Shown here piece by piece: positions 1-59,531 of a stretch of 64,000 bases of DNA. The DNA comes from Pogonophryne albipinna. Its lineage: Eukaryota; Chordata; Actinopteri; Perciformes; Artedidraconidae. Numbering within the stretch: the stretch's first letter is position 1; each line of letters begins with the position of its first letter. A program made the position numbers and the translations under genes. A model generated the notes under the pieces. The model saw nothing but the letters and a program-made list of their open reading frames with translations, was not told the DNA's origin and did not search any database. The DNA lies in NCBI GenBank assembly GCA_028583405.1, contig CM053244.1, forward strand, positions 4,345,425-4,409,424. Reading direction: 5' to 3'.

Positions 1-3000
1 GTGCAGAAAAATACACATTTTTTAAATATATTTTCCATTACAACTGCAACTTTATTTATTACAACCTCTCAAATCAGTCATTACAACTTGACGAATCTGC
101 TCTGTGGCAGTATAAATCGACGAATCTGCGGTCTTGACTTTTGCTACACTTCTTGCGATAAATGTGTCGCAAAAGTAATTTTCACCTGTAGATATGGGGG
201 GTTGGAGCGAAGGGGCGGAGCTATCAGAAGGACGAGGCTCGGGTGACTGGAGACTGCGGGCTAACGGTTCGTGTCGCTACCAGTCCGCTGACATGGCGCA
301 TCAATCAACGGTACATTTTGCCCATTACTTGCCCAGTATTACTTTGAATATTATTATTGTGATTGAGGATTAAATCCGCGTTGAAGACCACCGTTTTATA
401 TCGTGCAGTTTAGCGGCAAAATAACGTCAGTCAGCCAGCTAACGCTAGCTTTGTTGAGTTTATGCTAGCTAAACATGTAGTGGTTGTAGTCTACAGCAGT
501 AATTCATATATTATAGCCTACTGCTTTGGCACTAACGGTTGATAACCGTTTATGAAAATAAAACCAATTGAACTGTACTGAAATAATGACAAGTTTTATA
601 ATTGTCTTGGGCTCCTGCTGTGTTTTTAAAGCCTTTGTAAATTATCCATGCTATTTTCTATTTAGCTAACGTCGAAGTAGTGTATGTGAAATCAGCCTCA
701 CAATAAGATGTGTGTATATTACAATTATTAATGACATATTTCAAGATGATTACTTAGATATTACAATATGGTTGGTTGAGCTGGAGTTCATTATTGAGCT
801 TACACGTTAACGTCACAGTCATCTGAAAAACGAACCCAAACCTTGTTGTTTTTATTAATTGCATTACCAAATTGATATCAAATAAACAGTAAGCATTGGT
901 AACACAATTTCCAAAGTTACAGTAAAATAAAAAGGACCCTGACTCGGACAATACACAATCCAACATGTTCAACAGAAGAGAATCAGTTATATTGTTTGTA
1001 CACATGGTACTTTACATATATATCTGTTTGTTTAAGGTGTCCAGGTGATGCAGACAGGCTGGACCAGAGAGTGAGAGACAGAACTGGACTCCTCACAGCA
1101 GTGAACTTCAGCTCAGGTACAAAGACTCTATTTTTCATACTGTACAAAGAATCAAGAAAGATATTGGTTTAAATAAATGAAGTATTGACTTTAATACACT
1201 GATATACATTCCATTAAACAATACTAAATACTAGATCACCTACACATCAATTAAGTTGAGGGTTTTTTACATGCAAAAGGTTACTACATTTTAGATGTTA
1301 ACAAGCAATATGACTTTGTCAGCTTTCTAATTTAATGTATTGAAGGCAAAAATATGTAACACATAGTGAGAACTGCTACTATTTATCTCTCAATATTGTC
1401 TGTAAAAAACGTGGTAAAAGTTATTCTTTCAGTGAGACAACAGCAAGCTTCTACAGTTGCACTACGTTTTGATAACAGTTAAATATTATTTTGAAAATAA
1501 CATATATTTCAATGTTGATGAATTTCATACTGTTTATTCATAATCTGATTACAATTAAAAAATAATTATATCAACAGCCCCATAACACACAAACACACCT
1601 CTTTCATAAATAACACACTTGTTCTGCAATAATGTTTTATGTTTCCTGTCATTTTTGTTAGGAAAGGACATGCCTGAAAGACACGACATCTTCTCCTTCT
1701 CTGAGGGTCAAGAAGAACATCCAAGAGGAACATTAAAAGCTGATGTTATGAGATTTTAAGACCAGTACAGGACATTCACTAAGAAACTACTTTTATTGTG
1801 AAAACAAAGATCTGCACACCGAATATTTTTGTAGTCTATCAGGACCATCATTTGTTTGTGACGCTGCCTGCACCTCAGAGAAGGGGTGGTTATAGTCAGG
1901 CTTATAAAGTGTGGCGAAAAACATAGTCAGCTGATCGAATGCAGCTATTTCCACATCTACACTCCATCAGCTGATTATTTCTATTTGCCTCACTTTATGA
2001 GCTTCACATCACCTGTGCCTTGTACCGCAGAGTTTGCAACGTCACAAATCAAATGTTTTAAATAAAAAGCACATATGGACAGAAGGTGTAAACCTATTAA
2101 ATGTATAAGTAAACACATTTAGTCAAATAAAGTGACAGACTAGGCCTGTGCAGTTGGTATCAGCTTTGCCCAGCATGGGCTCCTCCATCAGGCCTGGTCC
2201 TCCTCGCAGAGGAAAGACCCTCAGTCCTCTCCAAACCAACAGACAGGACGTCCATCACACGGAGGTTTCTCCCTGAAGTCTCTGCAGCTCTGGACGCCAG
2301 GCTGTCTCAATCCGTCCACACTGAATATGAGAGGGGAAAAATGAAAATAATAAATGCTTTGGACAATAAGAAATATAAAGTTGACTGTTGAGTTGCTCAG
2401 TTTTTTTAGATTGTCAATACTATTACTGTATAACTAATATCTCAGGTTAAGAGGCACCTTCAAATAAAGATTGGTCTTTAAATACATGTTGTCTTTTGAA
2501 TTGTTTGTCTAAAGTCAAGGATCTAGAACTGGTACTTAGTTTTAATGATACAGTCTGGTTATTATGCTGTTTGGAGGAGGCATCACAGGTAAGAGTACTA
2601 ACTAGCTACCATCACATATACCTTAGCTTGACTTAAATGTATTAAACGTATAGTTCAGTGATGGCAAAATATAAATAACTAATGTCATGCAAACATATTA
2701 ATATTTGCTTGATTCCAGAGTTGAATTTAGCACAATTGCATACAAACGTTAAGGGATTTTAAGATTCTGAAGTCTTCGTTCTAAATAGAAAATAGCATGG
2801 ATAATTTACAAAGGCTTTAAAAACACAGCAGGAGCCCAAGACAATTATAAAACTTGTCATTATTTCAGTACAGTTCAATTGGTTTTATTTTCATAAACGG
2901 TTATCAACAGTTAGTGCCAAAGCAGTAGGCTATAATATATTAATTACTGCTGTAGACTACAACCACTACTTGTTTAGCTAGCATAAACTCAACAAAGCTA

Positions 3001-3445
3001 GCGTTAGCTGGCTGACTGACGTTATTTTGCCGCTAAACTGCACGATATAAAACGGTGGTCTTCAAAGCGGATTTAATCCTCAATCACAATAATAATATTC
3101 AAAGTAATACTGGGCAAGTAATGGGCAAAATGTACCGTTGATTAATGCGCCATGTCAGCGGACTGGTAGCGACACAAACCGTTAGCCCGCAGTCTCCAGT
3201 CACCCGAGCCTCGTCCTTCTGATAGCTCCGCCCCTTCGCTCCAACCCCCCATATCTACAGGTGAAAATTACTTTTGCGACACATTTATCGCAAGAAGTGT
3301 AGCAAAAGTCAAGACCGCAGATTCGTCGATTTATACTGCCACAGAGCAGATTCGTCAAGTTGTAATGACTGATTTGAGAGGTTGTAATAAATAAAGTTGC
3401 AGTTGTAATGGAAAATATATTTAAAAAATATGTATTTTTCTACAA
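1..3445. mobile_element. Long terminal-inverted-repeat DNA element, left end outside window
   Basis: Bases 1-665 reappear as the reverse complement at about 2781-3445, so the unit is a giant inverted repeat with a 2.1-kb centre. Stretches I compared by eye are nearly identical: the inner 120 bp of the arms match perfectly, and about 2 of 57 bases differ near 265-320. The arms are therefore young or kept alike by conversion. The match still holds at base 1, so the true left end lies before the window. No long ORF is present in the arms or centre. Exon-like stretches with splice-like borders occur near 1040-1115 and 1660-1760, and a GC-richer block lies at 2150-2320, but I recognise no protein in them. 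The family is unassigned; a non-autonomous DNA transposon is the simplest reading. Confidence 0.75.
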
Positions 3446-11917: not shown

Positions 11918-13886
11918 CAGAGGTGGGGGACTCGAGTCACATGACTTGACTCGAGTCGCATATTTTTGGACTTGAGATTTGCTTGACTAACATTGATAAA
12001 AGACTTGACTTTGACTTGGTATTCATGACTTGAGACTTGACTTGACTTGAGACAGATGACTCGAAAGGACTTCACTTTTTAAAATTAAATATTTGCATTT
12101 GTTTTTGTATTGTACGGAGCCCCTAAAGGGCAATGAAAAAAAAAAAGATACTGTATCTCTGTATGTAGTTACCGGAGCGCCAAGGAGGAAGTGGAGCACA
12201 AAGGAGACAACCGTTTCATCGCAGACTGTAATGTTTGGAAATGGCAGTGCATACATTATTTGAGATATATTTCGAACTCGGACTCTCCTTCACTTCATGA
12301 AATCGCTGCAGCATCAGGAGGCAGCGGGACGTGTAACTCCGCCTCTGAGAAGTGCAGCACCAGCGCGCATGAGCTGTGCCTTTTATGCAACGCCTTCACT
12401 GTGTTTACCTTCATTAGAACAGCTAAAGAGCGACCGCAGGCTGCTACGCTTTAACCACACACACCTCTACACACACACACACACACATCGAACTGCCCGA
12501 TTAATCCCCCTATTACTCGTTTTATGAAAGAGATTTCCCGGACATCTCCTTCATAAAACGAGTAATTGTCATCATGTTAGAAATTAAAATCAATGTTGAT
12601 ATGGCGTAATTTGAATTAAATACACTGTATTTAATTTAAATCTGTTTTATTCTAAAAACCGAATTTTCACACTACTTTGGTTTTCCGCTAGTGAATTTTC
12701 GTCATTTCCGGTTAGCATTAGCATGTGGCGAAATGCTACAGTTTCAAACCGTGAATTGAAGGTGAAATGGTGTGATGTTGTACACTGAGCACACTGGGAT
12801 TAACACTCATTTATCGCCGCTGAAATCACGTTTATTAGGGAATGTTTAAATAACCACAGACACCAGAATGATCTAATTTAGCAACAGAGAAAGGCAGGAA
12901 TTGCATTGGACCCGCCCCCGACGACGCCGGCCAATAGGAGAAGACCTCAGATGACAACAGGAAGAGCGAGCCAAGAATCAACCTCTTTGCCCTGACCTGG
13001 GCTGACCAACGCATGGGGAGAGAGCCTCCACTCGCACATTCCATTTGTACACCACCGCATCTTTTGTGTAATGAAATGCTGTTAACTTTTATAAGCTTCC
13101 CTTGACTCTTTTCAGTCTCTCCTGCTCTCAGGGTTCAATAATTACTAACACTGGTCACTAAGGCGCATGATGTGTGTGTCTTTGTGCTCTGCTCAGCTCT
13201 GCTCTGTGGTTGTGTGTCCGGCAACGGCATTTGTTTTCAAATGACCATGAACAGTAATTTACACACATCTGGCCAACTCCATATGTATATGTGGGTGTTC
13301 CCAAATACATTTGTTTAATCTTAATGTCGCACTGTCTGCACACAAACACACACACACATATCATGCGCCCTGGTACATACACTATTTTGTGGTATTGGCT
13401 TTGATGCAATATTTCTTTGTGCACAGACACAGTTAGGAACACAATGAGACAGAGTCATATGGGAGCACCTTAGACAGGAGACATGCTGTGACCCTGCTGA
13501 AGGGGAGCCAGGGCAGGAGGCTTCACATGTTGATGTAACATGTGTGTTGTACTCCTGTTTTTGCTTTAGAGCCCTTTTTGAAGTTATAGGGTTATCATTT
13601 CAGAGCCCCACTCTCCATTGCTGTTTACGTTGAAAATAAAACTAAACTATTCATAACCACAATATTGTAACTGATTTAAATGCGGAAACTGGGGTTATTC
13701 ATCAGAATTTCGTATGACTTGTGACTTGCTTGACTCTCACCACAGTGACTTGGGGCTTGCTTGACCTGAGCAATGACTTGACTTGCTTGACTCTCACCAC
13801 AGTGACTTGGGGCTTGCTTGAGACGTGTAAGTTAAGACTTGAGACTTGCTCATGACTTGCACATGTAGGACTTACTCCCACCTCTG
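11918..13886. mobile_element. hAT element with CAGAGGTGG ends and perfect 8-bp target duplication
   Basis: Begins CAGAGGTGGG and ends CCCACCTCTG. The flanking 8 bp are identical, GTAATTAC at 11910-11917 and 13887-13894, which defines the insertion precisely. Both ends contain arrays of GACTTG in the same strand orientation (11940-12055 and 13715-13870). The right array has a 57-bp tandem duplication with starts at 13728 and 13785. Such subterminal hexamers are typical transposase-binding sites in hAT elements. The 1969-bp body encodes no transposase. Its middle is occupied by a dispersed segment also found at 18.6-19.4 kb and 58.8-59.5 kb. Confidence 0.9.
12168..13324 (+). repeat. Dispersed segment, copy A (interrupted)
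   Basis: Shares blocks with 18630-19376 (inverted) and 58790-59495: a GTTACCGG-proximal start (shared with copy B only), a CTTCACTTCATGAA box, a CCACACACACCTCTACAC stretch, and a later block with GGCATTTGTTTT and TTTAATCTTAAT. Relative to the other two copies it has about 630 extra bases between about 12530 and 13158. A hairpin at 12512-12566 (ATTACTCGTTTTATGAA against its inverse) sits at the left border of that extra piece. No product is evident. Confidence 0.7.
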
Positions 13887-16264: not shown

Positions 16265-16708
16265 CTAATCACAGAGAGAATAGTACAAAATGAAGTATTA
16301 TGAATTAAACAGGAACAATTTCAAAAGGATTAGGAAAACTAAGAAAAGGCTACACCGAAGGAAAGACAATAAAATCATTGATAAACTTGTTTTGGTGACG
16401 TCGCTGAGACATCCTGTTCAAAAAATACAACAAAGAAAATAAGGTATTACCCCATAAACTAGTTGTCTAATTCAGGGGTTCCCAACCTTTATTGTGCCAA
16501 GGACCGGCAGATACATTCAAAAAAATCGCGGACCGGTTGTGAATTTTAACTGATTTTAATATTTACTCACCAGCAGTAATAGGTGGCAATAGAGGCTAAG
16601 TGTATTTAACAGCCTGAACAAATACCAATATGCATCCAAAACATATTAACAACGTTTAAAACCAGGATACAATTAAAACAAATTAGGACCACTGATATAA
16701 CTGAAGTG

Positions 16709-18458
16709 TCAGTGAGACCCCTGGGCTTGTTTGCCAGCCATAATAACGTCATACCGGGGCGTGATGGTTGACAATGAAATGCGCAGGGTATTCCTCACGT
16801 CCTGTCTGCTTCTAAGTCTGGTCTTAGTGGCCGTCATGGCAGAAAAACCTGCACAGATATGACGTTGGGAATGAGCAGTGTCTTCAGAGCAAGCGTGCCG
16901 ATCTCTTTGTATTCTCCCGACGCTTTGATCCAGAAGGATTGGAGTGTTTTCAGTCCTCCGTCATTCATTAGCTCGATCAGTCTTGTAGTGATGGGAGCTG
17001 GTCTCGACCATCGTCATTTAGAAATGGATCACGCATCCATCCTTTGGCATTCCTCGGGTCCTTTGCAGATGGAAGATAGCGTTCAAACGCATCAGACAGG
17101 GATAGCTGGTGGCTGTGTATCAACTCGCCAAGTCCCTCGGCTTCTTCCGAAAAACTGGATAAGTTGCTGAACATGTCAAAAACACCCCGGTTGACGCGAT
17201 CCGGCGACTTTGTCTGCGAGCCTGAATGTGTCAGCCGTCCTCCCCTGCATTGTCAGATTTAATTGGTTCAAAGCCCTAAAAATGTCACTCAAGTAGGCTA
17301 GTTTTGCGAGCCAGCTCTTGTCACTAAAGTGCGTGGCTAAAGGTGACTGCTTGTCAGAGAGGAATTTCTGTAATTGCTCTCTTAACTCGAACACTCTCGT
17401 CAGGGCTTTCCCATTCGACAGCCACCTCACCTCTGTAGAAGAAGAAGGCGTCTGTAATCAGCATCCATGTCCTCGCACAATAATTCAAACACCCTCGAAT
17501 TCAGGGCATGGGCTTTGATGTGGTTAATGACCCTTATTGCATCATTCAGGACCGTGTGCAGTTCAGGGGACATGTTCTTGCTTGCCAGCATCTCGCGGTG
17601 TATCATGCAGTGAGTTGCCTCGCATTCCGGAGCCACTTCTTTCACCCTGGCAGTAAACCCCGACAACCGGCCGGTCATCGCAGCAGCCCCATCAGTGCAG
17701 ACCCCGACACAAAACGCCCAATCCAGTCTGCCTGCAATGTATTCATTCACCACTTTGAATATTTCGGAGGCGTGGTTGAGCTTGGAAGTGAAAGACAACA
17801 GAGCAAATCTTCCTGCACCTCGTCTTGATGCACATAGCGACACACAACTGCCTTATTTTCCACATCAGTGGATTCGTCCACTTGAACTGCGTACCATTGA
17901 GATGCTTTTATTCGGTCCAACAATTGCCCTTCAATATCCTCGGCAATATCATCGATCCTCCTGGCAACAGTATTGTCCGAGAGTGGAACATGTCCTACCA
18001 TGCCAGCTGCTTCTTCTCCAGATGTCTTTGGCAGCGGGCAGTATCAGCTCCTCTCCTATTGCAAAGGGCTTTTTAGCTTTGGCTCTTCGGCGAGCAACCA
18101 GATATGAAGCCCTTGTTGCAGCGACGCTCGTTGACATTGTGGACTTTACACTTGCTTCTGCCCGTCCAACTCGCGTTTTTCCTTTCAAAAAACTCAACTG
18201 GTTTGTCAATCAGAAAAGGAAGTTTGGTTGACAAGTGCCGTTGGCTTCATTGCTTCATGACAAAGCATTTCGGCACACACAACACACAATGGTTTTGGCG
18301 CCAACGAATCACCCGTTGCAACAAATCCATATTTCATATACGAGGAATCGTATTTGCGATTTCTTTTTGGTAGCTTTTTCGGGTTGTGCCTCACCATCTC
18401 TTTTATTGGAATAGCCCGCAAAGAAGCGGTTCATGGCAGTTTGCTGAGGTCCACTCAT
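16709..18458 (-). pseudogene. hAT transposase, ZBED5/Charlie-like, several frameshifts
   Basis: Cut-and-paste transposase of the hAT superfamily. Reading the minus strand from the ATG at 18458: a MSGPQQTAMNRFF start; a BED-finger remnant with RKYDSSYMKYGF and PLCVVCAEMLC, whose histidine half is lost near a frameshift at about 18215; the catalytic-core segment VDESTDVENKA (about 17880), containing the expected first aspartate; CVGVCTDGAAAMTG (about 17695) with the second; THCMIHREMLASK; RWLSNGKALTRVFELREQL; and finally TATKTRLRSRQDVRNTLRIS (about 16800), the hAT C-terminal dimerisation region, before a stop at 16709. At least four frame changes (near 18360, 18215, 17990-17840 and 17430) separate these blocks. 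About 580 codons remain, near the usual family length. It cannot make a working protein and is not a domesticated gene. Confidence 0.92.
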
Positions 18459-18791
18459 CTCTGCACCTGCGCTCACCTCTACACTCACTGACATCAGCAC
18501 CCTGACACTGGCAGCGCTGTCCAGTCCGGTCGGGTGCTGGTGTCCGGAATAGTTCGCTTGACGGATCATTAGTTCCGGCGGTGTCAAGCGATCACAGAGC
18601 TGCCGCTGCTCTCTGACAGCATTTAGCACATCGAGATTAAGATTACACTAACTTCTTTTGGGAACACCCACATATAGATGGAGTTGGCCAGATGTGTGTC
18701 AATTACTGTTCATGGTCATTTGAAAACAAATGCCGTTGTTGAACACACACAAACACACCGAACATACACACACACAGCGGAGCTGAGCAGA

Positions 18792-18796
<5 letters not shown>

Positions 18797-18878
<82 letters not shown>
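18797..18878. repeat. (CA)n microsatellite
   Basis: About 40 CA units with one TA interruption near 18834. On the other strand it corresponds to the short TG run of copies A and C. Confidence 0.97.
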
Positions 18879-18879
<1 letters not shown>

Positions 18880-18950
18880 CATGCACCTTTGTGACCGTAT
18901 TGACCGTATTTCCTTCATACAACAAGTAATAGAAGGAATAATCGGGCCGT

Positions 18951-19075
<125 letters not shown>

Positions 19076-19830
19076 GTGTGTGTGGTTGAAACGTAGCAGC
19101 CTGCAGTGGGGAACACAGTGAAGGCGGTGTGTATGTGCTGCACTACTCAGAGGCTGCCTCCTGATGCTGCAGCCAGTTCATGAAGTGAAGGACGTTTTAC
19201 AAATAAACAAACATCTCTACGCCCCTGGCCGACATGTCCTTAAAATGAAGTCAGAGTTTGAAATATATGTCAAATAATGTCTGCACTGCCATTTCCCCAC
19301 ATAAACACAACAGTCTGCGATGAAACGGTTGTCTCCTGTGTGCTCCTCTTCCTATTGGCGCACCGGTAACTTTCTCTGAGACCTTATGCTAACCAATTTT
19401 GATCTATTTTGCATGTTTTGGATGAAATAATATGACTGGTATAGGTGCGAACATTTAAAAAATATATAATCTTTTTTTTTATAAACATTTTTTTTCATAT
19501 ATTTATAATTCTGCAAAAAATTACGATAAGCTCACAGCTATTTCGCAGACCGGCAGTAACACACGGACCGGGGGTTGGGAACCCCTGGTCTAATTAATAT
19601 GGACTGTATGAAATGAGGGATAATTAATAAAATAAGAATGATATAAACTGGATATTGTGCCTTACATTCAAGCAATGTTCGAGGTCCTTCGGGGGGCAGG
19701 GGGCACTCCTTCAGAGCTTCTTTGACTCTGTGGTGGCATCAGCCATCTTCTATGGTGTGGCCTGCTGGGGCAGCAGCATCTCGGCTGCTGACAGGAAGAG
19801 ACTGAACAGACTGGGAAGGAAGCTCTGTCC

Positions 19831-21457
19831 TGGGGAGGAGGTGGGAGACAGGAGTCCTCACTGTGGAGGAGGTGGGAGACAGGAGTCCTCTGGACACTGT
19901 GGAGGAGGTGGGAGACAGGAGTCCTCTGGACACTGTGGAGGAGGTGGGAGACAGGAGTCCTCACTGTGGAGGAGGTGGGAGACAGGAGTCCTCTGGACAC
20001 TGTGGAGGAGGTGGGAGACAGGAGTCCTCTGGACACTGTGGAGGAGGTGGGAGACAGGAGTCCTCTGGACACTGTGGAGGAGGTGGGAGACAGGAGTCCT
20101 CACTGTGGAGGAGGTGGGAGACAGGAGTCCTCTGGACACTGTAGAGGAGGTGGGAGACAGGAGTCCTCTGGACACTGTGGAGGAGGTGGGAGACAGGAGT
20201 CCTCTGGACACTGTGGAGGAGGTGGGAGACAGGAGTCCTCACTGTGGAGGAGGTGGGAGACAGGAGTCCTCTGGACACTGTGGAGGAGGTGGGAGACAGG
20301 AGTCCTCTGGACACTGTGGAGGAGGTGGGAGACAGGAGTCCTCAGGCACTGTGGAGGAGGTGGGAGACAGGAGTCCTCACTGTGGAGGAGGTGGGAGACA
20401 GGAGTCCTCTGGACACTGTGGAGGAGGTGGGAGACAGGAGTCCTCTGGACACTGTCGAGGAGGTGAGAGACAGGAGTCCTCTGGACACTGTGGAGGAGGT
20501 GGGAGACGGGAGTCCTCACTGTGGAGGAGGTGGGAGACAGGAGTCCTCTGGACACTGTGGAGGAGGTGGGAGACAGGAGTCCTCACTGTGGAGGAAGTGG
20601 GAGACAGGAGTCCTCACTGTGGAGGAGGTGAGAGACAGGAGTCCTCTGGACACTGTGGAGGAGGTGGGAGACAGGAGTCCTCTGGACACTGTGGAGGTGG
20701 TGGGAGACAGGAGTCCTCTGGACACTGTGGAGGTGGTGGGAGACAGGAGTCCTCTGGACACTGTGGAGGAGGTGGGACACAGGAGTCCTCTGGACACTGT
20801 GGAGGAGGTGAGAGACAGGAGTCCTCTGGACACTGTGGAGGAGGTGGGAGACAGGAGTCCTCACTGTGGAGGAGGTGAGAGACAGGAGTCCTCTGGACAC
20901 TGTGGAGGAGGTGGGCGACAGGAGTCCTCTGGACACTGTGGAGGTGGTGGGAGACAGGAGTCCTCTGGACACTGTGGAGGAGGTGGGAGACAGGAGTCCT
21001 CTGGACACTGTGGAGGAGGTGAGAGACAGGAGTCCTCTGGACACTGTGGAGGAGGTGGGAGTCCTCTGGACACTGTGGAGGTGGTGGGAGACAGGAGTCC
21101 TCTGGACACTGTGGAGGAGGTGGGAGACAGGAGTCCTCTGGACACTGTGGAGGAGGTGGGAGACAGGAGTCCTCTGGACACTGTGGAGGAGGTGAGAGAC
21201 AGGAGTCCTCTGGACACTGTGGAGGTGGTGGGAGACAGGAGTCCTCACTGTGGAGGAGGTGGGAGACAGGAGTCCTCTGGACACTGTGGAGGAGGTGGGA
21301 GACAGGAGTCCTCTGGACACTGTGGAGGTGGTGGGAGACAGGAGTCCTCACTGTGGAGGAGGTGGGAGACAGGAGTCCTCTGGACACTGTGGAGGAGGTG
21401 GGAGACAGGTGGGAGACAGGAGTCCTCTGGACACTGTGGAGGAGGTGGGAGACAGGA
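19831..21457. repeat. 36/31-bp minisatellite inside a LINE
   Basis: About 47 copies of a unit CTGTGGAGGAGGTGGGAGAC plus AGGAGTCCTCTGGACA (36 bp), mixed with a 31-bp form lacking TGGAC. The 36-bp unit is 12 codons (LDTVEEVGDRSP), so runs of it stay in frame and give long spurious ORFs on both strands. The 31-bp form shifts frame. Common variants are GAGGTGGTGGGAG and GGTGAGAG. Confidence 0.97.
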
Positions 21458-28869: not shown

Positions 28870-29330
28870 ACGTCTGTCCGTCCTGGGAGAGGGATCCCTC
28901 CTCTGTTGCTCTCCCTGAGGTTTCTCCCATGTTCCCTTAAACTGTGGGTTTTCTCTGGAAGTGTTTCCTTGTACGATGTGAGGGTCTAAGGACAGAGGGT
29001 CTAAGGTCAGAGGGTCTGAGGACAGAGGGTCTGAGGACAGAGGGTCTAAGGACAGAGGGTCTAAGGACAGAGGGTCAGAGGACAGAGGGCCTGAGGACAG
29101 AGGGACTAAGGACAGAGGGTCTAAGGACAGAGGGTCTAAGGACAGAGGGTCTAAGGACAGAGGGTGTCGTTTTTCTCATACTGATATTCTGAACAATCTG
29201 TGCTGTTGTATTTGCTGTAAAGTGTCTGTAGGCTATTTTTATTATATGTTCAGCACTTTGGCTCGACCAAACATCGTTTATAAATGTGCTGTATAAATAA
29301 AACTTGATTTGATTTGATTACACACTATAC
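28870..29330 (+). mobile_element. LINE (L2-like) 3-prime tail with internal minisatellite
   Basis: Starts with CCTGGGAGAGGGATCCCTCC and CTCCCTGAGGTTTCTCCCAT, the hallmark 3-prime region of fish L2-type LINEs and of SINEs that share it. It ends ATAAATAAAACTTGATTTGA with a short TTGAT run. Between them the normally single GAGGGTCTAAGGACAGAGGG motif has been multiplied. Confidence 0.8.
28980..29164. repeat. 15-bp minisatellite in a LINE tail
   Basis: About 12 copies of AGGGTCTAAGGACAG with few changes (TCTGAGG, TCAGAGG). The unit equals the reverse complement of the array at 57757-58295. Confidence 0.95.
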
Positions 29331-36694: not shown

Positions 36695-37715
36695 TCAGGC
36701 AGGAACATAGAACCATAACACCTCTATCAGCTGATCCAACAGGCAGGAACATAGAACCATAACACCTCTATCAGCTGATCCAACAGGCAGGAGCATAGAA
36801 CCATAACACCTCTAGCAGCTGATCCAACAGGCAGGAACATAGAACCATAACACCTCTATCAGCTGATCCAACAGGCAGGAACATAGAACCATAACACCTC
36901 TATCAGCTGATCCAACAGGCAGGAGCATAGAACCATAACACCTCCATCAGATGATCCAACAGGCAGGAGCATAGAACCATAACACCTCTATCAGCTGATC
37001 CAACAGGCAGGAACATAGAACCATAACACCTCTATCAGCTGATCCAACAGGCAGGAACATAGAACCGTAACACCTCTATCAGCTGATCCAACAGGCAGGA
37101 ACATAGAACCATAACACCTCTATCAGCTGATCCAACAGGCAGGAGCATAGAACCATAACACCTCCATCAGCTGATCCAACAGGCAGGAGCATAGAACCGT
37201 AACACCTCTATCAGCTGATCCAACAGGCAGGAACATAGAACCGTAACACCTCTATCAGCTGATCCAACAGGCAGGAACATAGAACCGTAACACCTCTATC
37301 AGCTGATCCAACAGGCAGGAGCATATAACCATAACACCTCTATCAGCTGATCCAACAGGCAGGTGCATATAATCATAACACCTCTATCAGCTGATCCAAC
37401 AGGCAGGAACATAGAACCATAACACCTCTATCAGCTGATCCAACAGGCAGGAGCATAGAACCATAACACCTCTATCAGCTGATCCAACAGGCAGGAACAT
37501 AGAACCATAACACCTCTATCAGCTGATCCAACAGGCAGGAACATAGAACCGTAACCCCTCTATCAGCTGATCCAACAGGCAGGAGCATAGAACCATAACA
37601 CCTCTATCAGCTGATCCAACAGGCAGGAACATAGAACCGTAACACCTCTATCAGCTGATCCAACAGGCAGGAACATAGAACCATAACACCTCTATCAGCT
37701 GATCCAACAGGCAGG
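36695..37715. repeat. 44-bp minisatellite, about 23 copies
   Basis: The unit starts AACATAGAACCATAACACCT and ends TCAGCTGATCCAACAGGCAGG. Copies are very alike; the commonest changes are GAACAT/GAGCAT and CCATAA/CCGTAA. I see no obvious source element in the flanks. Confidence 0.97.
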
Positions 37716-38574
37716 AGCAGGGAGACAGAGCACTGAGAGCACAGCACCAAGGTTACAGGTGCGTGTGCTCAGCCAGGACAGCATGAACTGATACACCGGG
37801 TCAAAGCTATGGGCCTTGGGAGATATGTCCCTAACAGTTAGCATTCCCAAGGCTCCCTTGACAAAAACAATGGGATTTTTCATCAAGCAGTGTTCAAAGT
37901 CAAACATTAACCTCCCGTAATGGATGTTCAGAGCTATGGTTTTTCATTATGTCTGGGCCGACACACGTTGATGAGTTTCGACGCTTGGCCTTGGACCTAG
38001 ATTAATAAAGAAAACTCTAATTCATGTCAAAACCCCAACTCCAAAACCACAAATGTAATTCTCAGATTATCTTTTCAAATGACCAGCGATTAACATTTGT
38101 TTAACAAAAAACAACTGTTACTGGCAACAGCAATGGGCAACTGGCCAACACCAAGGACTCATTTGCATTTAATCACCATTCAAACACAGAGCATTTACAT
38201 ACAACAATGAAGACTTTGTTCATTTGTTCTGTAAAGGATTTGCATCTGCTTTATGATCTACATATTATATTGCAGCAAAATTCATGATATTATACGCAGT
38301 GTTTGATTTGCATTGAATGTGCACAGTAACAGTGTGTCATGTTTTGGAAGCATACTCATTACCTTTCATATGGAATGACATGATCATTATGAGGATGACG
38401 TGCACACTGTCAAATGAGTTGTTACTATTTGTTTAAAGAGCCTTTAAGTCTTGATCATGTTTTATTCATGATCTAATTATTCATCATGTAAAAGTACCAA
38501 TGGGACTTTAAGTTCAATGACAGTTACCACAGATATACCTTTCAAGCATTCATTGTATGTTCATTTTCTCATGC
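37716..38574. other. Non-coding stretch, no gene seen
   Basis: AT-rich, unique-looking, with CATGAT-rich parts near 38340-38500. No gene signal. Confidence 0.5.
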
Positions 38575-39395
38575 ATCAGTATGTAGTGTCTCTACTTTAA
38601 AGAGTCCTCTCCTGCTGATGTTCAGGTGTATATCAGTATGTAGTGTCTCTACTTTAAAGAGTCCTCTCCTGCTGATGTTCAGGTGTATATCAGTATGTAG
38701 TGTCTCTACTTTAAAGAGTCCTCTCCTGCTGATGTTCAGGTGTATATCAGTATGTAGTGTCTCTACTTTAAAGAGTCCTCTCCTGCTGATGTTCAGGTGT
38801 ATATCAGTATGTAGTGTCTCTACTTTAAAGAGTCCTCTCCTGCTGATGTTCAGGTGTATATCAGTATGTAGTGTCTCTACTTTAAAGAGTCCTCTCTGCT
38901 GATGTTCAGGTGTATATCAGTATGTAGTGTCTCTACTTTAAAGAGTCCTCTCCTGCTGATGTTCAGGTGTATATCAGTATGTAGTGTCTCTACTTTAAAG
39001 AGTCCTCTCCTGCTGATGTTCAGGTGTATATCAGTATGTAGTGTCTCTACTTTAAAGAGTCCTCTCCTGCTGATGTTCAGGTGTATATCAGTATGTAGTG
39101 TCTCTACTTTAAAGAGTCCTCTCCTGCTGATGTTCAGGTGTATATCAGTATGTAGTGTCTCTACTTTAAAGAGTCCTCTCCTGCTGATGTTCAGGTGTAT
39201 ATCAGTGTGTAGTGTCTCTACTTTAAAGAGTCCTCTCCTGCTGATGTTCAGGTGTATATCAGTATGTAGTGCCTCTACTTTAAAGAGTCCTCTCCTGCTG
39301 ATGTTCAGGTGTATATCAGTATGTAGTGTCTCTACTTTAAAGAGTCCTCTCCTGCTGATGTTCAGGTGTATATCAGTGTGTAGTGTCTCTACTGG
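38575..39395. repeat. 57-bp minisatellite, about 14 copies, within a MITE-related sequence
   Basis: The unit begins TGTAGTGTCTCTACTTTAAA and ends GTGTATATCAGTA. It is 19 codons long, so the array gives spurious ORFs (38618-38902 and 38902-39498) separated by a one-base deletion at about 38895. The sequence just after the array (GGGACATGTCTCCATG, TACTGCCTGTGCTTC) matches the MITE family at 60938-61166, and the unit resembles the part of that MITE just before its GGGACATGTCTCC. Confidence 0.95.
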
Positions 39396-39988
39396 GACAT
39401 GTCTCCATGTGTTAATGTTCAGAAAGCTCTTTATTCTTCTCGTACTGCCTGTGCTTCAGCAGGGGGGGGGGGGCTACTTGGCTCCCCCCCCCCCTTAAAA
39501 CATATATTTCATTGTGATGGGGTGTGATTGTCAAAGACTAATACATTTCAATGGTTGTATTCATGGTAATTAATACCATATTGATTGCCAAAACGAAGTG
39601 TCTCCTGATTGAAATGGCACGAGCCTCCCCAGGCCCTGTGGCCTTCGGAGGCTCAGTGTCTCCTATCAAAGCTTGAGGTGGTCTGTCTTCCATTTCAGTA
39701 ATTGTAAAATGTTAACTGAATTTGGAGAAAATCAACTGTACATGGTTAAAGAACGTTTGTTTCTGTTGACTGCAGTCCTGTGATTATAATCAGCTGTGCG
39801 TTGAGGTAAGGACTCAGTCGTGCCAGTTGTCCCGTCACAAACTCATGTAAAAAGATGATTAACAGAGATTCAATATTCAAGCTTCCATTGTTGAGAAACA
39901 ATCAGCTACGTGCAGAGGGAAGAGTGCACCATGGTGTTGGTCTTTTCGGCAAAGCAGAGGATGGAAGAGTGTTGATATATGGGGTCAT
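39396..39988. other. MITE remnant then non-coding sequence
   Basis: 39396-39460 is MITE-like (see the 57-bp array), followed by G10 and C12 runs at about 39463-39495. The remainder is unique-looking up to the hAT target site at 39981-39988. Confidence 0.5.
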
Positions 39989-40060
39989 CAGCGACGTGCG
40001 GTCAGGGGAGGCAGGTGAGGCAGAGCCTCACTTGTCATTTTCCAATGTAACGGAAAAAAA

Positions 40061-40092
40061 GAATAATAATACAAATAATAATAATAATAAAA
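40061..40092. repeat. (AAT)n microsatellite
   Basis: About ten AAT units, with one ACAA interruption. Confidence 0.85.
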
Positions 40093-40796
40093 TGTGTCCA
40101 CTGATCTGTGTTGTAAATGTGATTTCTGTATGATTCCAATCGCTTTTTATAGTAAAAATCGGCTAATTTGCCGAGCTCCGTTACAACTACGGGGAGCGAT
40201 GAGATTGAGAAGTGAGGCAGGGACGAGCTCTGCCTCACAGAAGCCCACAGTAACTTGCTGGAGCACGGGCACTAATTTAACGGGGGCACTTATTTTGTGA
40301 GCGCGCTCAAGCCAGTTGCTGTGTGGTGAGGTGAGGCACAGATGAGCTCTGCCTCACCTCAGAATGCGTCACCCCACAGAAACTGGCTGGAAAGCGGTCC
40401 CTAAGCGCATGCCTGCACCATCTCACTGTATGTCACCAATGTAATGTTTGTAGATCCCTTTATTACATTTATCCTCGCCATCCATAGTCTCTAAATAACT
40501 TATTTCACGTATATATGATATTTAAGCTCGCTGGTCTCATCATACAACGGCAATGAAAAAAGCACCAGGGGAGGCAGCCACAACCTCTGCCGCACTGAAG
40601 GGGGCGCAAGTGAGCCCACAGGTTCTTGTTGCTACTGTTATTCTACGCAGAGACGGTAGACCATAGACCAGGGATCACCAACTACATTTGTCCAAGGGCC
40701 AAAATGTATCCAATAGACACTATCGCGGGCCGGGGGGGTACAGGTACTGCATAAAGCTTAGCAGACTCTTCACGCTAATGAAGGATCACTTCTAGG

Positions 40797-41711
40797 CAGG
40801 GTTGGGATGGTTACTTTGTAAATGTAATCAGTTACTGATTACTGAATACATGCTCTGAAAGTAATCAGAATACAGTTACAGTTTTGTGTCTTATAAAAGT
40901 AACGTGTTCAGGTTACTTTTGGAATACTTTCTTTTTCCATAACAGATGGGTATGTTTTGGTGAGCAGGAGACACTTGTTTTACTGTTTTAATGGCGTATC
41001 AAGAACTCAAACACAACATCTTGGTGTCATTCTGGACAGCTCCCTCTCATCTGCACCCCACATAAAAAACATCACACGGACTGCATTCTCCTACTGTAAA
41101 CCTTTCCTTAGAATATGTTATGAATTGTAAGGTGTCCTTGGGTGCTTTGAAAGGCGCCCCTAAATAGAATGAATTATCATTATTATTATTATTATTATCT
41201 GAAACGATGTAATAACTTTTAAAACTTGTTCCAGTCACTTGCCCCATGCATTCAGCAGCAGCAGGCCATTCACTTTGATTTGATCCCGTTATAAATGTCA
41301 TCATTTCGACAATAAAGAAATGCTACATCAACGTTATCGTGCACATTTTATCTAACCATCTCCGTTTCTAACTTTCAATATATTTTAAAAGAGATCTCTC
41401 TCTCTCATCTGCGTGCGGGGGCGGGGCCTCACAGACACGCTGCATCTCTCTCTCGCTCACAGACATGCTGCAGCGCTGTGTAGTGTGCACACAGTTCTGC
41501 CGGTAATGAATATTACATTTTGTGAGGAAACTTTTCCACCAATAATTCCAATAAGTATTCCAAAATGTATTCACTTCAGGTTTACGAAAGTAACTGTAAT
41601 CAGATTACTCGTTTTTCAAATGTAACGCCAGCTGAATACAGTTAGCCTACTTGATTTTTGTATTCTGATTACGTAACGCCGTTACATATATTCCGTTACA
41701 ACCCAACCCTG
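40797..41711. mobile_element. Inner hAT element of the nest
   Basis: Begins CAGGGTTGGGATGGTTAC and ends GTTACAACCCAACCCTG. The flanks are identical 8-mers, CTTCTAGG at 40789-40796 and 41712-41719. Fragments of the same family lie at 46035-46190 and 54966-55110. The body has GTAATCAG/CTGATTAC repeats near both ends and holds a LINE fragment. No transposase. Confidence 0.92.
41020..41199 (+). mobile_element. LINE (L2-like) fragment with ATT tail inside the inner hAT
   Basis: Encodes LGVILDSSLSSAPHIKNITR, a recognisable LINE ORF2 motif. It continues into GAATTGTAAGGTGTCCTTGG, GAAAGGCGCCCCTAAATAGA and a final (ATT)n at 41174-41199, the standard 3-prime end of this LINE type. The copy is truncated and was carried, or has inserted, within the hAT element. 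Confidence 0.75.
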
Positions 41712-42339
41712 CTTCTAGGCTACTGTCCCGCAGCTCCTGCCTCTCTGTTGGACTCTGTCGCAGCGGGGCTGCTGCTGTGGTGCGAGCGCACAAAGCAGAC
41801 TCTTCACAACGAAGGATCACTTCTTCTTCTTCAAGGAAGGGAAGGTTTCGCAGTACGCAGTCTACTGTCCCGCAGCTGCTGCCTCTCTGTTGGACTCCGG
41901 TACTGCACCTTACTCTCGAGACGTTGTAAAAAAAAAATGGGTGGGGGGCGAACGCAGTAACCACTCCGCCAACGCCACAGTCACCCCCGTCGTGCGGGCC
42001 GGATGAGAATGTCTGGCGGGCCGGATGTGGCCCGCGGGCCGCCAGTTGGTGGTCACTGCCATAGACTGTATATATAAACAACAAGCTAGGCTTTTGAAAC
42101 TAGAGGAAGATAAGGAGGACTTTTACAAAAAAGTAATAAAGATTGTTGTCCAGAAGGATAGCATGGACTTCATCTTCAAGTCAAGGTAAGACCACATTTG
42201 TAATGAAAATTGGATCTTACTAAGAGAGAACAATCCAATATTTAGATTTTGGGTAGGCTATCCTTTTGTTGAACGGTCTGTTTAAAATGAATCGAAGCAT
42301 CAGACTAAAAAAGCTTTTGAAAATAACAGAATATTTCGA

Positions 42340-42690
42340 TTAAAGGTGGGGTAGGTAAGTTTGAGAAACCGGCACGATATACACTTTTTGTTATATTCCA
42401 TGGAATGCTCTTAACATCCCGATAGCAATGAATATCTTAAGTGTTTTGACAAAAAATACATAAAAACATTTCATCTGTGGAAGCCGTAGTACTGTAAAAA
42501 GCACGACCACTCATTTTAGCCGGCCCGGCTAAAATAACCTGCCTGTCAGCCTTCCATCTGTGCACAAACTTATCTCGTGCCCTCATTGGTCATGTGCGCG
42601 TTCGTGTGTGTTGGAGGAGGGGCTGTGTATTTTCAAATTCTAGCGCACTCGAGCTGGTTTCTCTACAATTACCTACCCCGCCACCTTTAA
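42340..42690. mobile_element. TTAA-flanked MITE inside the outer hAT
   Basis: TTAA at 42340 is followed by AGGTGGGGTAGGTAA. The other end is TTACCTACCCCGCCACCT followed by TTAA (42687-42690). The TTAA duplication and about 15-bp inverted ends fit piggyBac/Kolobok-type MITEs. The 0.35-kb body is non-coding. Confidence 0.85.
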
Positions 42691-42779
42691 GGTCAAAATA
42701 TATAATATTTGTAAATCTGACTCTGAAAGAGTCAGTGCCTCACCAGCCATGAACCTCACCGCACGTCACTGGGGGTCAT

Positions 42780-43932
42780 TCTCTCAGAATCAATGTCACC
42801 CTCAGTTATGGCTGGAGAGAAAGAAACAACGCAGAAGGAGGAGAAGAAGGAGGAGGAGAATACAGCAGCCCAGGGATTGGGAGTCCCTGGGTGACTGGGT
42901 CTAATTGAAATACATTCTGACTAAAGCAATGACTTTAATGACATTTTGAATCCAGGACTGGAGTAATGACATGGGAAGGCCCCAGAGGGAGCACTTTAAA
43001 AAGCCAGAGCCAGGGGGAGGAGGGGAGAACATGGAGACAAAAGGAAAGAGGAGAGGGTTGAGAGGTTACATTTGGAGCCAGGATATTCAGTAACAGCCGG
43101 GAGGGATGTGCGGAGAAAGACGGACGGACAGAGACAGAACAGTTCGAGGAGACTTTAAAGAGACATCCAGGGAGAGAAGAGGTGCTCTTTCTCCTTTTAG
43201 CTCGTGTCCCTGACTGCACTGTTGATAGGTCAACGGGATGAAGCCACCTGAGGTCCCCCCACCGTCGCAATATGGTAACACTCCATCCTGTCATTAAATA
43301 TGAATCACTTGATGGCATATTCATGAGCCAAGCATCTCATATTGCTTTGCTTTGAAGGGGCCTACACTGGGTATGACCTCATTGTTGGGCGGTGGAACAT
43401 CAAAGTTATTTGTATTTACAAATCTTTAAAAGTCTCCTATTATACTGTTCTTCATCAATATATCCCAGCTCTCAGATATATACAGAGCCTGTCTCTGATT
43501 GGCTGAAACACCAAACAGATTATTGCAGCATTACCCATAATCCCCTCTGTTTCAGCCCTGTTTCCAAAGTGCTGATTCTCTGTCTGTTACTTCAGATGAA
43601 AATAAGGAGCCCCTCCCCACGCCCCTCTGAGAGAGATTTGATTACAAAGAACTCAATGGTGCTCTTGAGGAGGTTCAGGTGATAAAGGGGGGGGGGGGGG
43701 GCTAATGTTACAAAAATTGCTATGACATCATAAAGTGGCCAAAATCTGATCAGCTCATTTTCAGACAGGTTTTCATAGAAATGGATCGCCACTAAATTCT
43801 TAAAATCCAGTCAATTGATATCATTTGCCAATATCTTCCAATTCTGTCTCTGGATTGAAGTCAGATGTCTCAACTTATCCTGTCTTTCAGCATTTATGAA
43901 TAGTTTGAAGACTGAAAAAAGGGCGGTTTTCA
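42780..43932. other. Non-coding stretch, no gene seen
   Basis: Purine-rich at 42820-43200, and a G16 run at about 43687. The last 150 bp are a diverged duplicate of the sequence upstream of the tRNA-Leu pseudogene at 44493. Confidence 0.5.
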
Positions 43933-44013
43933 GGTAGTGTGGCCGAGTGGTCGAAGGCGCTGGATTTAGGCTCCAGTCTCTCAGGAGGCGTGGGTTCAAT
44001 TCCCACCACTGCC
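43933..44013 (+). tRNA. tRNA-Leu (TAG), body intact, unusual 3-prime base
   Basis: Folds as a class II tRNA: acceptor GGTAGTG with CACTGCC, D arm GCCGAGTGGTCGAAGGC, anticodon stem-loop CTGGA-TTTAGGC-TCCAG (anticodon TAG), a long variable arm, and T arm GTGGGTTCAATTCCCAC. The internal promoter boxes are good (A box TGGCCGAGTGG, B box GGTTCAATTCC). Two features argue against full function. The base after the acceptor (discriminator, 44014) is G, whereas tRNA-Leu normally has A, an identity element for the leucyl-tRNA synthetase. Also, no run of four T follows within about 30 bp for polymerase III termination. Decayed copies follow at 44258 and 44493. Confidence 0.85.
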
Positions 44014-44257
44014 GTTCTTTCTGCAGTCTAGATTCTTGGAAGGAAGTCGTCCCTTACCCAGCACTTGCTCGCAGAGTGCTGCAGTAATGCACATGGAATT
44101 GACTTTCGGTTACCCATCCGGCAGTCAAGGTGTTTGTGGTTTGATTCCTGTAATGAAGTCTATGGTGAACACAAGCTTACAAGCTTTTCAAGTTGTGTTG
44201 TACGACTTCAAATGTAGGCTCCCCAGTGATATGCAAGCCTTGCACCTTGAACCCATG

Positions 44258-57756: not shown

Positions 57757-58295
57757 CTCTGTCCTTAGACCCTCTGTCCTTAGACCCTCTGTCCTTAGAC
57801 CCTCTGTCCTCAGACCCTCTGTCCTTAGACCCTCTGACCTTAGATCCTCTGTCCTCAGACCCTCTGTCCTTAGACCCTCTGTCCTTAGACCCTCTGTTCT
57901 CAGACCCTCTGTCCTCAGACCCTCTGACCTTAGACCCTCTGTCCTTAGACCCTCTGTCCTTAGACCCTCTGACCTTAGACCCTCTGTCCTTAGACCCTCT
58001 GTCCTTAGACCCTCTGTCCTCAGACCCTCTGTCCTCAGACCCTCTGTCCTCAGACCCTCTGACCTTAGACCCTCTGTCCTTAGACCCTCTGTCCTTAGAC
58101 CCTCTGTCCTTAGACCCTCTGACCTTAGACCCTCTGTCCTCAGACCCTCTGTCCTCAGACCCTCTGTCCTTAGACCCTCTGTCCTTAGACCCTCTGTCCT
58201 TAGACCCTCTGTCCTCAGACCCTCTGTCCTTAGACCCTCTGTCCTTAGACCCTCTGACCTTAGACCCTCTGTCCTCAGACCCTCTGACCTCAGAT
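57757..58295. repeat. 15-bp minisatellite, about 36 copies
   Basis: The unit is ACCCTCTGTCCTTAG with T/C and GTCC/GACC variants, the reverse complement of the unit at 28980-29164. Being five codons (DPLSL), it creates a long spurious ORF (57669-58418). It is followed at 58294-58340 by a short GATCCAGGACT repeat. Confidence 0.97.
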
Positions 58296-58789: not shown

Positions 58790-59495
58790 CCTCCTTCACT
58801 TTATGAAATCTCTGCGGCACCAGTGGCCTGTACTACGAAGCAGGATTTGCTATTTACACTATTCATTCATGAAGTATGACGCTGCGCTGTCAGCACGCGT
58901 CTCCATGTTTGTGATTGGTCAAATGTTGGTAACCCCGTCCCTTTCACGTGAACGCGCTCTCAGCCGGACAGAGAAACCCTGGTTGATTTGCTGAGTTGAT
59001 AACCAGCTTCGTAGGACCGCTTAGCGACATCGCGTTTGTTAGGGTTAGTTAAGCCGGGTAAATCAAACATATCCAGGGTCTGTTGAACTGGCTTCGTCGT
59101 ACAGGGCACCGGAGGCAGTAACGTGTAACCCAGCAGAATCTGAGAAGAGCAGCACCAGCTGCAAAGAGCTGTGCCTTTTACTGTTTACTTCACTGCGTTT
59201 CCCTTCATTAGAACAGCTGATAGAGATCGAGGCTGCTACGTTTAACCACACACACCTCTACACACATCGAACTACCAGAGTATTCCCCCTCGTTTTATGA
59301 AGGAGATGTCCTGTCACCGGGGCGCATGATGTGTGTGCGTGTCCGGTGTGTTTGTGTGTGTCCGACACCACCGGCATTTGTTTTAAAATTACCAAGAACA
59401 GTAATTTACACAAATCTGGTTCTCCATAGTTATATGTGTATTCCCAAGTAAAAGAAATTCGTTTAATCTTAATCTTGATGTGCTATAGTCCTGCC
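58790..59495 (+). repeat. Dispersed segment, copy C (interrupted by a MITE)
   Basis: Shares CCTTCACTTTATGAAAT, AGGCAG, CCACACACACCTCTACAC, GCATGATGTGTGTG, GGCATTTGTTTT and TTTAATCTTAATC, in order, with copies A and B. The MITE at 58827-59106 interrupts the stretch that is continuous in copy A at about 12311-12324. Confidence 0.75.
58827..59106. mobile_element. Harbinger-like MITE within copy C
   Basis: Starts CCTGTACTACGAAGC and ends GCTTCGTCGTACAGG. It is flanked by CACCAG (58818-58823) and CACCGG (59107-59112), with a further TGG before the left end. In copy A the site reads GCATCAGGAGGCAG without an insert, so the 280-bp piece is a clean insertion. Non-coding. Confidence 0.7.
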
Positions 59496-59531
59496 GGAGT
59501 GCACCGGAACGAACGATACTATCATAAACAA

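What the first reader, a model, noticed from the sequence alone, without database searches (positions are those of the whole stretch)
39981..42779. Three hAT elements nested like Russian dolls, each with a perfect 8-bp target duplication
Flanks GGGGTCAT, CCATAGAC and CTTCTAGG are duplicated exactly around 39989-42771, 40669-42058 and 40797-41711. The termini differ, so these are three separate hAT families that inserted one into another. A LINE tail lies in the innermost and a TTAA-flanked MITE (42340-42690) in the outermost, giving a time-ordered record of at least four insertions in 2.8 kb. Perfect duplications suggest all are fairly young. That hAT elements make 8-bp duplications is established; the order follows from nesting.
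Basis: partly seen in the sequence, partly recalled or inferred. Interest (0 to 1): 0.75.

Follow-up and report, generated by a model that had tools for sequence, protein, structure and literature searches.

The report
Pre-assembled hAT transposons, nested once
Three jumping-gene remnants sit one inside another in a fish-like genome, but the inner two were already fused into one mobile element before landing here, so the nesting does not mean that the innermost arrived last.

Summary
In detail: three hAT-like units are nested, each with an exact 8-bp duplication. The history read from it is not. In the window's own genome the middle and inner units (40669-42058, LINE piece included) form ONE 1.39-kb element, "c": 40 of 40 fetched long matches carry both units, 34 with their own exact 8-bp duplication, one at 7 of 8, five mismatched. 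The inner duplication CTTCTAGG/CTTCTAGG is intact in 34 of 41 copies. The outer element has its TTAA MITE at the same place in 13 of 13 fetched copies (one cut off inside it), and 13 of 13 lack c. So only two insertions need to have happened here: outer-with-MITE into host DNA, then c into outer. Inner-into-middle predates c-into-outer: nesting order is not arrival order. c's duplications carry a central TA in 36 of 36, the nnnTAnnn of Buster-group hATs. c is young: mean 0.65% divergence.

Side result: at two other loci two c copies bracket a 4.6-4.8-kb segment with a long open frame; the blocks are flanked by different 8-bp duplications (TCATACAG; CTCTAGGG), as a hAT macrotransposon would be, with a likely donor locus.

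The parts
39981..39988 (+). 5' target-site duplication of the outer element, GGGGTCAT
   Evidence: repeated exactly at 42772-42779
42772..42779 (+). 3' target-site duplication of the outer element, GGGGTCAT
39989..42771 (+). Outer non-autonomous hAT-like element; 1385 bp without the composite and one copy of its duplication; left arm 39989-40668, right arm 42067-42771
   Evidence: 39 other places listed for the left arm (best 40 of 1943 candidates scored); 12 of those fetched plus one met in L054: 13 of 13 without the composite, 11 of 13 with exact 8-bp duplications (one of these, L062, lies in a GT run)
42340..42690 (+). TTAA-bounded MITE inside the outer element (piggyBac-like by its TTAA edges; label recalled)
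   Evidence: at the same place in 13 of 13 other outer copies; L070 breaks off inside it and L072 lacks 3 bases; related MITE sequence elsewhere in other surroundings
40661..40668 (+). 5' target-site duplication of the composite, CCATAGAC
   Evidence: CCATAGACTGTATATATAAAC, once and uninterrupted, in 8 of 12 fetched outer copies
42059..42066 (+). 3' target-site duplication of the composite, CCATAGAC
40669..42058 (+).
   Evidence: 40 of 40 other fetched copies contain the whole unit; duplication centre TA in 36 of 36
40797..41711 (+). Inner hAT-like unit (915 bp), a fossil insertion carried by every fetched copy of c
   Evidence: not seen outside c among the fetched copies
40789..40796 (+). 5' copy of the inner unit's duplication, CTTCTAGG
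   Evidence: both copies intact in 34 of 41 rows, the other 7 with one change in one copy
41712..41719 (+). 3' copy of the inner unit's duplication, CTTCTAGG
41010..41200 (+). LINE-like fragment with (ATT)n tail inside the inner unit; edges approximate, label recalled
   Evidence: at least 94.8% of its columns filled in each of 41 rows
40749..40796 (+). First copy, left piece, of an internal tandem duplication of the middle unit; interrupted by the inner unit
   Evidence: with the inner unit and one duplication left out it aligns to the second copy, score 106.8 against at most 27.6 in 200 shuffles
41720..41755 (+). First copy, right piece, of the same internal tandem duplication
41788..41897 (+). 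Second copy of the internal tandem duplication; an internal uninterrupted control for the inner insertion

Best explanation
The locus is one non-autonomous hAT element (outer, already carrying a TTAA MITE) into which one copy of a second non-autonomous hAT with different ends (c) jumped. c is itself a fusion: earlier, in a founder, the inner hAT (with a LINE fragment) inserted into one arm of an internal duplication of the middle hAT. The middle element's ends then mobilised the whole 1.39-kb block, in trans, through a transposase of Buster-type target preference (nnnTAnnn). That burst was recent (0.65% mean divergence from the majority). Two insertions need to have happened here: outer into host, then c into outer at CCATAGAC. 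The inner insertion is older than c's arrival. Shown: the shared composite structure, separate 8-bp duplications, outer copies without c, TA-centred targets. Inferred: mobilisation in trans by a Buster-type transposase, a single founder for the fusion, and that outer and MITE were joined before the outer element spread.
For: A search of the window's own genome with 39700-43100 (best 40 of 4316 candidates scored) listed the window plus 40 places matching the whole middle+inner unit at 95-99%; the window alone matched the whole nest. All 40 were fetched: 40 of 40 hold both units and both ends; 34 exact 8-bp duplications, one 7 of 8, five mismatched. Taking the 35 and the window's (the five mismatched left out), 35 of 36 octamers are distinct and 36 of 36 have TA at positions 4-5; mean divergence by part 0.57-0.78%; inner duplication intact in 34 of 41. 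Inner unit: of 40 places listed 1 is the window, 10 were already in the c list, 14 of the other 29 were fetched and 14 of 14 lie between the same middle-element flanks. Middle right arm: 40 places listed, 20 fetched, 20 of 20 carry the inner unit's 3' end (18 by the script, two marked '?' by it because of a one-base change in the duplication and read by eye). Outer: 13 of 13 fetched copies without c and with the MITE; 8 of 12 show the exact uninterrupted site. Within the window itself the inner unit interrupts one of two tandem copies of a middle-element repeat. The Buster consensus nnnTAnnn is given in PMC3517528 (passages).
Against: Genome searches score only the best 40 candidates, so older middle copies without the inner unit, or lone inner units, could exist unseen; the pattern search meant to find them did not complete. 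Weak inner-like ends occur at 46191 and 54963 in the window (64-90% over 21-126 columns), so an inner-type family may exist apart from c. 5 of 40 c copies have mismatched flanks, so recombination or conversion also moves c sequence. Four of the 13 outer copies (L054, L062, L066, L070) have a shortened sequence at the c site, so their lack of c is less clean than the eight exact sites and L063, which differs there by one base within CCATAGAC and a short stretch after it. One middle-arm copy (L099) has other sequence about 30 bases into the inner unit. No transposase of the c family was looked for. No MITE-free outer copy was seen, so the MITE could be an original part of the outer element.
Confidence: 0.95

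Rival explanations
1. One reading: outer, middle and inner elements inserted one after another at this locus, innermost last.
For: The anatomy alone: three exact 8-bp duplications with different termini.
Against: 40 of 40 other fetched c copies carry the inner unit at the same base with the same duplication or a one-base variant of it; 34 further fetched inner or middle-arm copies agree.
Confidence: 0.01
2. All three units form one composite element that moves together.
For: None found: the window is the only place listed (best 40 candidates) that matches the whole nest.
Against: 13 of 13 fetched outer copies lack c; the 40 other c matches stop at or within about 20 bases of c's ends, without the outer element.
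Confidence: 0.01
3. c spread by recombination or segmental duplication rather than by transposition as a unit.
For: 5 of 40 copies have unmatched flanks; conversion-like patches are visible (the C17 left copy; the C4 copy); L016 and L017 are a duplicate pair, the duplicate ending at a 1000-N gap.
Against: 34 of 40 copies have exact 8-bp duplications, and with L022 and the window these are 35 different octamers in 36, all TA-centred. Recombination does not make these.
Confidence: 0.02
4. For the side result only: the C5 and C17 blocks arose by homologous recombination of a circle (c plus segment X) into resident c copies, not by transposition of c-X-c.
For: Gives the same arrangement of flanks; conversion between c copies is seen; the C15 locus has mixed flanks and no second c within 10.4 kb on that side.
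Against: Both c copies at C5 and the right copy at C17 carry five donor-type markers (40857A, 41426A, 41811T, 7-bp deletion 41904-41910, 41933C) found together in 1 of 37 other copies, L027; resident copies would be expected to bring common-type markers at the outer ends. The C17 left copy has the donor type at 40857 and 41933 but the common type from 41426 to 41910, which neither reading explains without conversion.
Confidence: 0.3

Closest known systems
Buster-group non-autonomous hAT families (e.g. Mar of Drosophila, PMC3517528; passages read)
   Same: CAG-type short inverted ends, 8-bp duplications with the nnnTAnnn consensus, non-autonomous, recent spread.
   Different: c contains a second hAT-like insertion with both its ends, and a LINE fragment, amplified with it; its transposase is not identified.
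Nested hATs in maize (a Ds-l4 inside Ds-l3-15, PMC3260210; passages read)
   Same: One hAT inside another.
   Different: There given as one example and called rarer than nesting of LTR elements; here the nested pair became a family with at least 40 near-identical copies.
Ac/Ds macrotransposons of maize (PMC9910405 and PMC3260210, passages read; Huang and Dooner 2008 and Wang et al. 2022 seen only as citations)
   Same: Two hAT copies bracketing a segment that moves with an 8-bp duplication outside.
   Different: Here in an animal genome, with non-autonomous copies at both ends and a likely donor locus still present. Inferred from sequence only, not seen to move.
Tandem duplications by reversed-ends transposition of maize Ac (PMC3744419, title and start of abstract in a listing)
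   Same: Makes tandem duplications next to hAT copies; a possible alternative first step for the c-X-c block.
   Different: Here a repeat-repeat exchange explains the C10 arrangement as well; the two were not told apart.

Membership tests
hAT superfamily (outer, middle/c, inner) | 8-bp target-site duplication | tested here: met
   window; c 34 of 40 exact plus one 7 of 8; outer 11 of 13 exact; inner duplication intact in 34 of 41, though that is a single event
hAT superfamily (outer, middle/c, inner) | short terminal inverted repeats, here CAG...CTG | tested here: met
   11/12, 10/12 and 11/12 inverted matches
hAT superfamily (outer, middle/c, inner) | hAT transposase encoded or supplying in trans | not tested
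   three open frames within the nest were run against Pfam without a match; no partner transposase was searched for
Buster group of hAT (c only) | target consensus nnnTAnnn | tested here: met
   TA at positions 4-5 in 36 of 36 duplications; consensus from PMC3517528
Buster group of hAT (c only) | Buster-type transposase sequence | not testable with these tools
   no transposase frame seen in c; partner unknown
piggyBac-like MITE (42340-42690) | TTAA at both edges, inverted ends | tested here: met
   TTAAAGGTGGGG...CCACCTTTAA in the window; both edges present in 12 of 13 other outer copies, one of them 3 bases short beside the edge and one with a changed base (L054)
piggyBac-like MITE (42340-42690) | insertion shown by an empty TTAA site | tested here: inconclusive
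   no outer copy without the MITE was seen; related MITE sequence at other places
hAT macrotransposon (C5 and C17 blocks) | two element copies in the same orientation around a segment, one 8-bp duplication outside the block, different at each locus | tested here: met
   TCATACAG at C5, CTCTAGGG at C17, GTGTAAAC at both inner edges; left outer flanks (about 2 kb each) without similarity
hAT macrotransposon (C5 and C17 blocks) | movement as one block | not testable with these tools
   needs empty sites in relatives or an excision test

The most novel reading that the evidence does not exclude
The c family has formed a natural hAT macrotransposon in a vertebrate. At C10, c inserted at GTGTAAAC between two direct copies of a ~1.05-kb repeat R (R1-a-[c]-b-R2). 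Exchange between R1 and R2 made a tandem duplication, giving [c]-b-R-a-[c]. That block, carrying an open frame of 584 or 671 codons that looks coiled-coil-rich by eye, then moved to two new sites with fresh 8-bp duplications.
Probability: 0.6. Interest if true: 0.6.

Novelty: new member of a known kind. Interest (0 to 1): 0.45.

Why it matters
Nesting is used to order transposon insertions (recalled; a tool for inferring transposon chronology, PMC5657132, was seen in a listing only). This locus is a clear, checkable case where the rule fails, because the nest was built elsewhere and then copied as a block; dating by interruption must first ask whether the inner pair is a family. c also shows that a hAT can take in a second hAT, ends and all, and still amplify. 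If the side result holds, the same ends can pick up and carry several kilobases of neighbouring DNA with a long open frame in an animal genome, with the intermediate locus still visible.

Tried and rejected
Rejected: three successive local insertions; one three-layer element; chance. Inner-like ends at 46191 and 54963 were examined as possible lone copies, but are only weak partial matches. Viral-collection scans with terminus patterns gave 2, 0, 0 and 0 stretches; the two (L001, L002) were not examined. A scan of prokaryote contigs with the empty-site pattern for c gave none. Pfam on seven window frames gave nothing above a cut-off; Pfam on two frames of X and NCBIfam on one gave nothing above a cut-off. 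The protein search with the 40147-40353 minus frame found no candidate. A 38-residue reading of the outer right arm against solved structures gave one hit at E 4.1, read as chance. The C15 locus was checked for a second c to complete a third macrotransposon: none within 10.4 kb on one side. L047's mismatched flanks are unexplained; one c copy only in the 30 kb fetched around it. Literature: 10 searches. 'macrotransposon' with 'hat' listed five papers; with 'vertebrate' it listed one, PMC10175614, where that word and 'macrotransposition' stand only in reference titles. I claim no more than that about absence from print; the library lacks most subscription journals. BuT2 paper PMC3942097: passages only, not used further.

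Full report
What is there. The three nested units and their exact 8-bp duplications are real and at the stated places. A blind screen of the window for exact 8-bp repeats with matching inverted ends finds the three, two other hAT-like elements and nine satellite rows, 14 rows in all; 30 block shuffles give 0 to 2 each. The window lies in a 1.07-Gb assembly of 861 contigs. Named matches of a transposase fragment in the window (17427-17852) include two fishes, Chaenocephalus aceratus and Scophthalmus maximus, among bats, spiders and other animals (best 120 of 204 listed). I read the host as a teleost from that and from the look of the repeats (the latter recalled), and no more closely.

The decisive test. 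One search with 39700-43100 (best 40 of 4316 candidates scored) listed the window itself and 40 further places matching the middle unit with the inner unit as one block of about 1.39 kb at 95-99% identity; only the window matched the whole nest. I fetched all 40. In 40 of 40 the block runs from one end of the middle element to the other (1374-1414 bp). In 34 of 40 it is flanked by an exact 8-bp duplication, one more (L022) differs by one base, and five do not match. Leaving those five out, the 36 duplications (35 and the window's) include 35 different octamers and all 36 have TA in the centre, the nnnTAnnn consensus reported for Buster-group hATs (PMC3517528, passages). So the middle ends mobilise the block; the inner unit is a passenger.

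The inner unit does not appear alone among what was looked at. Of 40 places listed for the inner unit (1502 candidates) one is the window, ten are in the list above, and 14 of the remaining 29 were fetched: 14 of 14 have the same middle-element flanks and the CTTCTAGG duplication, one with a single change. Of 40 places listed for the middle right arm (1333 candidates), 20 were fetched and 20 of 20 carry the inner unit's 3' end (two needed reading by eye, and one, L099, has other sequence about 30 bases further upstream). In the alignment of 41 copies, 34 have both CTTCTAGG copies intact and 7 have one change in one of them. The LINE-like stretch is at least 94.8% filled in each of the 41. Divergence from the majority is 0.65% on average, median 0.58%, range 0.36-1.75%.

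The inner insertion can also be seen from inside the window. The middle element holds an internal tandem duplication. With the inner unit and one duplication left out, the interrupted first copy aligns with the uninterrupted second copy (score 106.8; best of 200 shuffles 27.6). In that alignment the octamer CTTCTAGG spans the edge of a 34-base length difference between the two copies, so that difference was there before the inner unit arrived.

The outer element. Its left arm matches 39 other listed places at 98-99% (best 40 of 1943 candidates). I fetched 12 of those, all from the best 14, and met another by luck in L054. 13 of 13 lack c. 8 of 12 show the exact uninterrupted site CCATAGACTGTATATATAAAC; L063 differs slightly there, and L054, L062, L066 and L070 are shortened there. 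11 of 13 have exact 8-bp duplications (10 of 12, and L054); L064 has 6 of 8 and L070 breaks off inside the MITE. 13 of 13 have the MITE start at the same TTAA. The window's outer element differs from the majority by 0.51% and its c copy by 0.58%.

The corrected history. (i) Somewhere else, an inner hAT carrying a LINE fragment landed in a middle hAT (or the LINE landed in it before the spread). (ii) The fused 1.39-kb element amplified, recently. (iii) Separately, an outer hAT with a MITE amplified. (iv) A copy of the outer element landed here at GGGGTCAT. (v) A copy of c landed in it at CCATAGAC. Nesting orders (iv) before (v), and the founder's middle before its inner; it does not put the inner insertion after (iv) or (v), and the family shows that it came before (v). 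The exact inner duplication says nothing about youth at this locus.

Side result. Of the five c copies with unmatched flanks, L016, L017, L019 and L032 share flanks crosswise. From the C5 flanks and that of L019 I expected a partner copy on C17 with CTCTAGGG outside and GTGTAAAC inside; it is there, itself interrupted by a 1.1-kb insert. The blocks read TCATACAG-[c]-GTGTAAAC..X..GTGTAAAC-[c]-TCATACAG (C5) and CTCTAGGG-[c]-GTGTAAAC..X..GTGTAAAC-[c]-CTCTAGGG (C17). X is 4835 and 4567 bp, counting both GTGTAAAC edges, about 99% identical apart from a 267-bp repeat present in different number. It holds an open frame of 671 (C5) and 584 (C17) codons, stop to stop, without a Pfam match. A search with X finds C10, where c sits between the two ends of X with matching GTGTAAAC duplications and a dispersed repeat of about 1.05 kb lies on both sides; exchange between those repeats would give X between two c copies. 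The C10 copy carries the same five rare markers as both C5 copies and the right C17 copy; each of these three differs from it by one private change at the sites read (40792, 41728, 41065). Against: the C17 left copy has a patch of common-type markers; the C4 paralogue has a common-type c at the same GTGTAAAC site, so conversion between copies happens or the site was hit twice; C15 has mixed flanks without a partner found. L017 is probably an assembly duplicate of L016, since the duplicate (at least 10.9 kb, 99.8%) ends exactly at a 1000-N gap. I call macrotransposition likely, not shown.

Known ground. Macrotransposons and nested hATs are described for maize Ac/Ds (PMC9910405, PMC3260210, passages). 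A non-autonomous hAT with Buster-type targets is ordinary. A nested pair that became a family is a variant on that theme rather than a new kind.

Noticed in passing
G000:C5:30344232-30351859, G000:C17:8897562-8906034, G000:C10:32404300-32412100 (L053, L054, L056, L057, L087): Two c copies bracket a 4.6-4.8-kb segment with a long open frame at two loci, the blocks flanked by different 8-bp duplications; a likely donor locus on C10.
   Followed up: partly
window 11918-13886: Another hAT-like element with both ends, exact duplication GTAATTAC and CAGAGGTGGG ends.
   Followed up: no
window 16473-19587: Another hAT-like element, duplication GTCTAATT, holding a 141-codon piece of a transposase frame; several matched proteins that carry a name are called SCAN domain-containing protein 3. 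It shares internal segments with 11918-13886, and both share some with 59111-59507.
   Followed up: partly
L013 (G000:C228:159901-161616): Another c insertion, in other surroundings, at the same CCATAGACTGTATATATAAA motif that was hit in the window: a shared target motif or a shared repeat.
   Followed up: no
G000:C5:30330918-30331917 (L052): A 1000-N gap at which a duplicate of at least 10.9 kb, 99.8% identical, ends exactly; probably a false duplication in the assembly.
   Followed up: partly
G000:C17:8903793-8904894 (L056): A 1.1-kb insert inside the left c copy, with TAGAGATGG inverted ends and CAAAGCAG on both sides: another hAT-like insertion.
   Followed up: no
window 2-665 and 2781-3444: A 664-bp inverted pair, 98.8% identical.
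   Followed up: no
window 36696-37716, 38575-39393, 19830-21409, 28980-29165 with 57757-58294: Long, very even minisatellites (44-, 57-, 36- and 15-bp units); the 15-bp array occurs twice in opposite orientation.
   Followed up: no
window 43933-44014: A tRNA match above the Rfam cut-off just right of the nest.
   Followed up: no
protein P0121 (Notothenia coriiceps record): A predicted 'thyroid receptor-interacting protein 11-like' whose tail matches the translated middle arm (69% over 45% of the query): probably a transposon read as an exon in a gene model.
   Followed up: partly
G000:C1:309615-310230: A middle right arm with two further overlapping partial matches, as if the internal tandem unit were present in more copies.
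   Followed up: no
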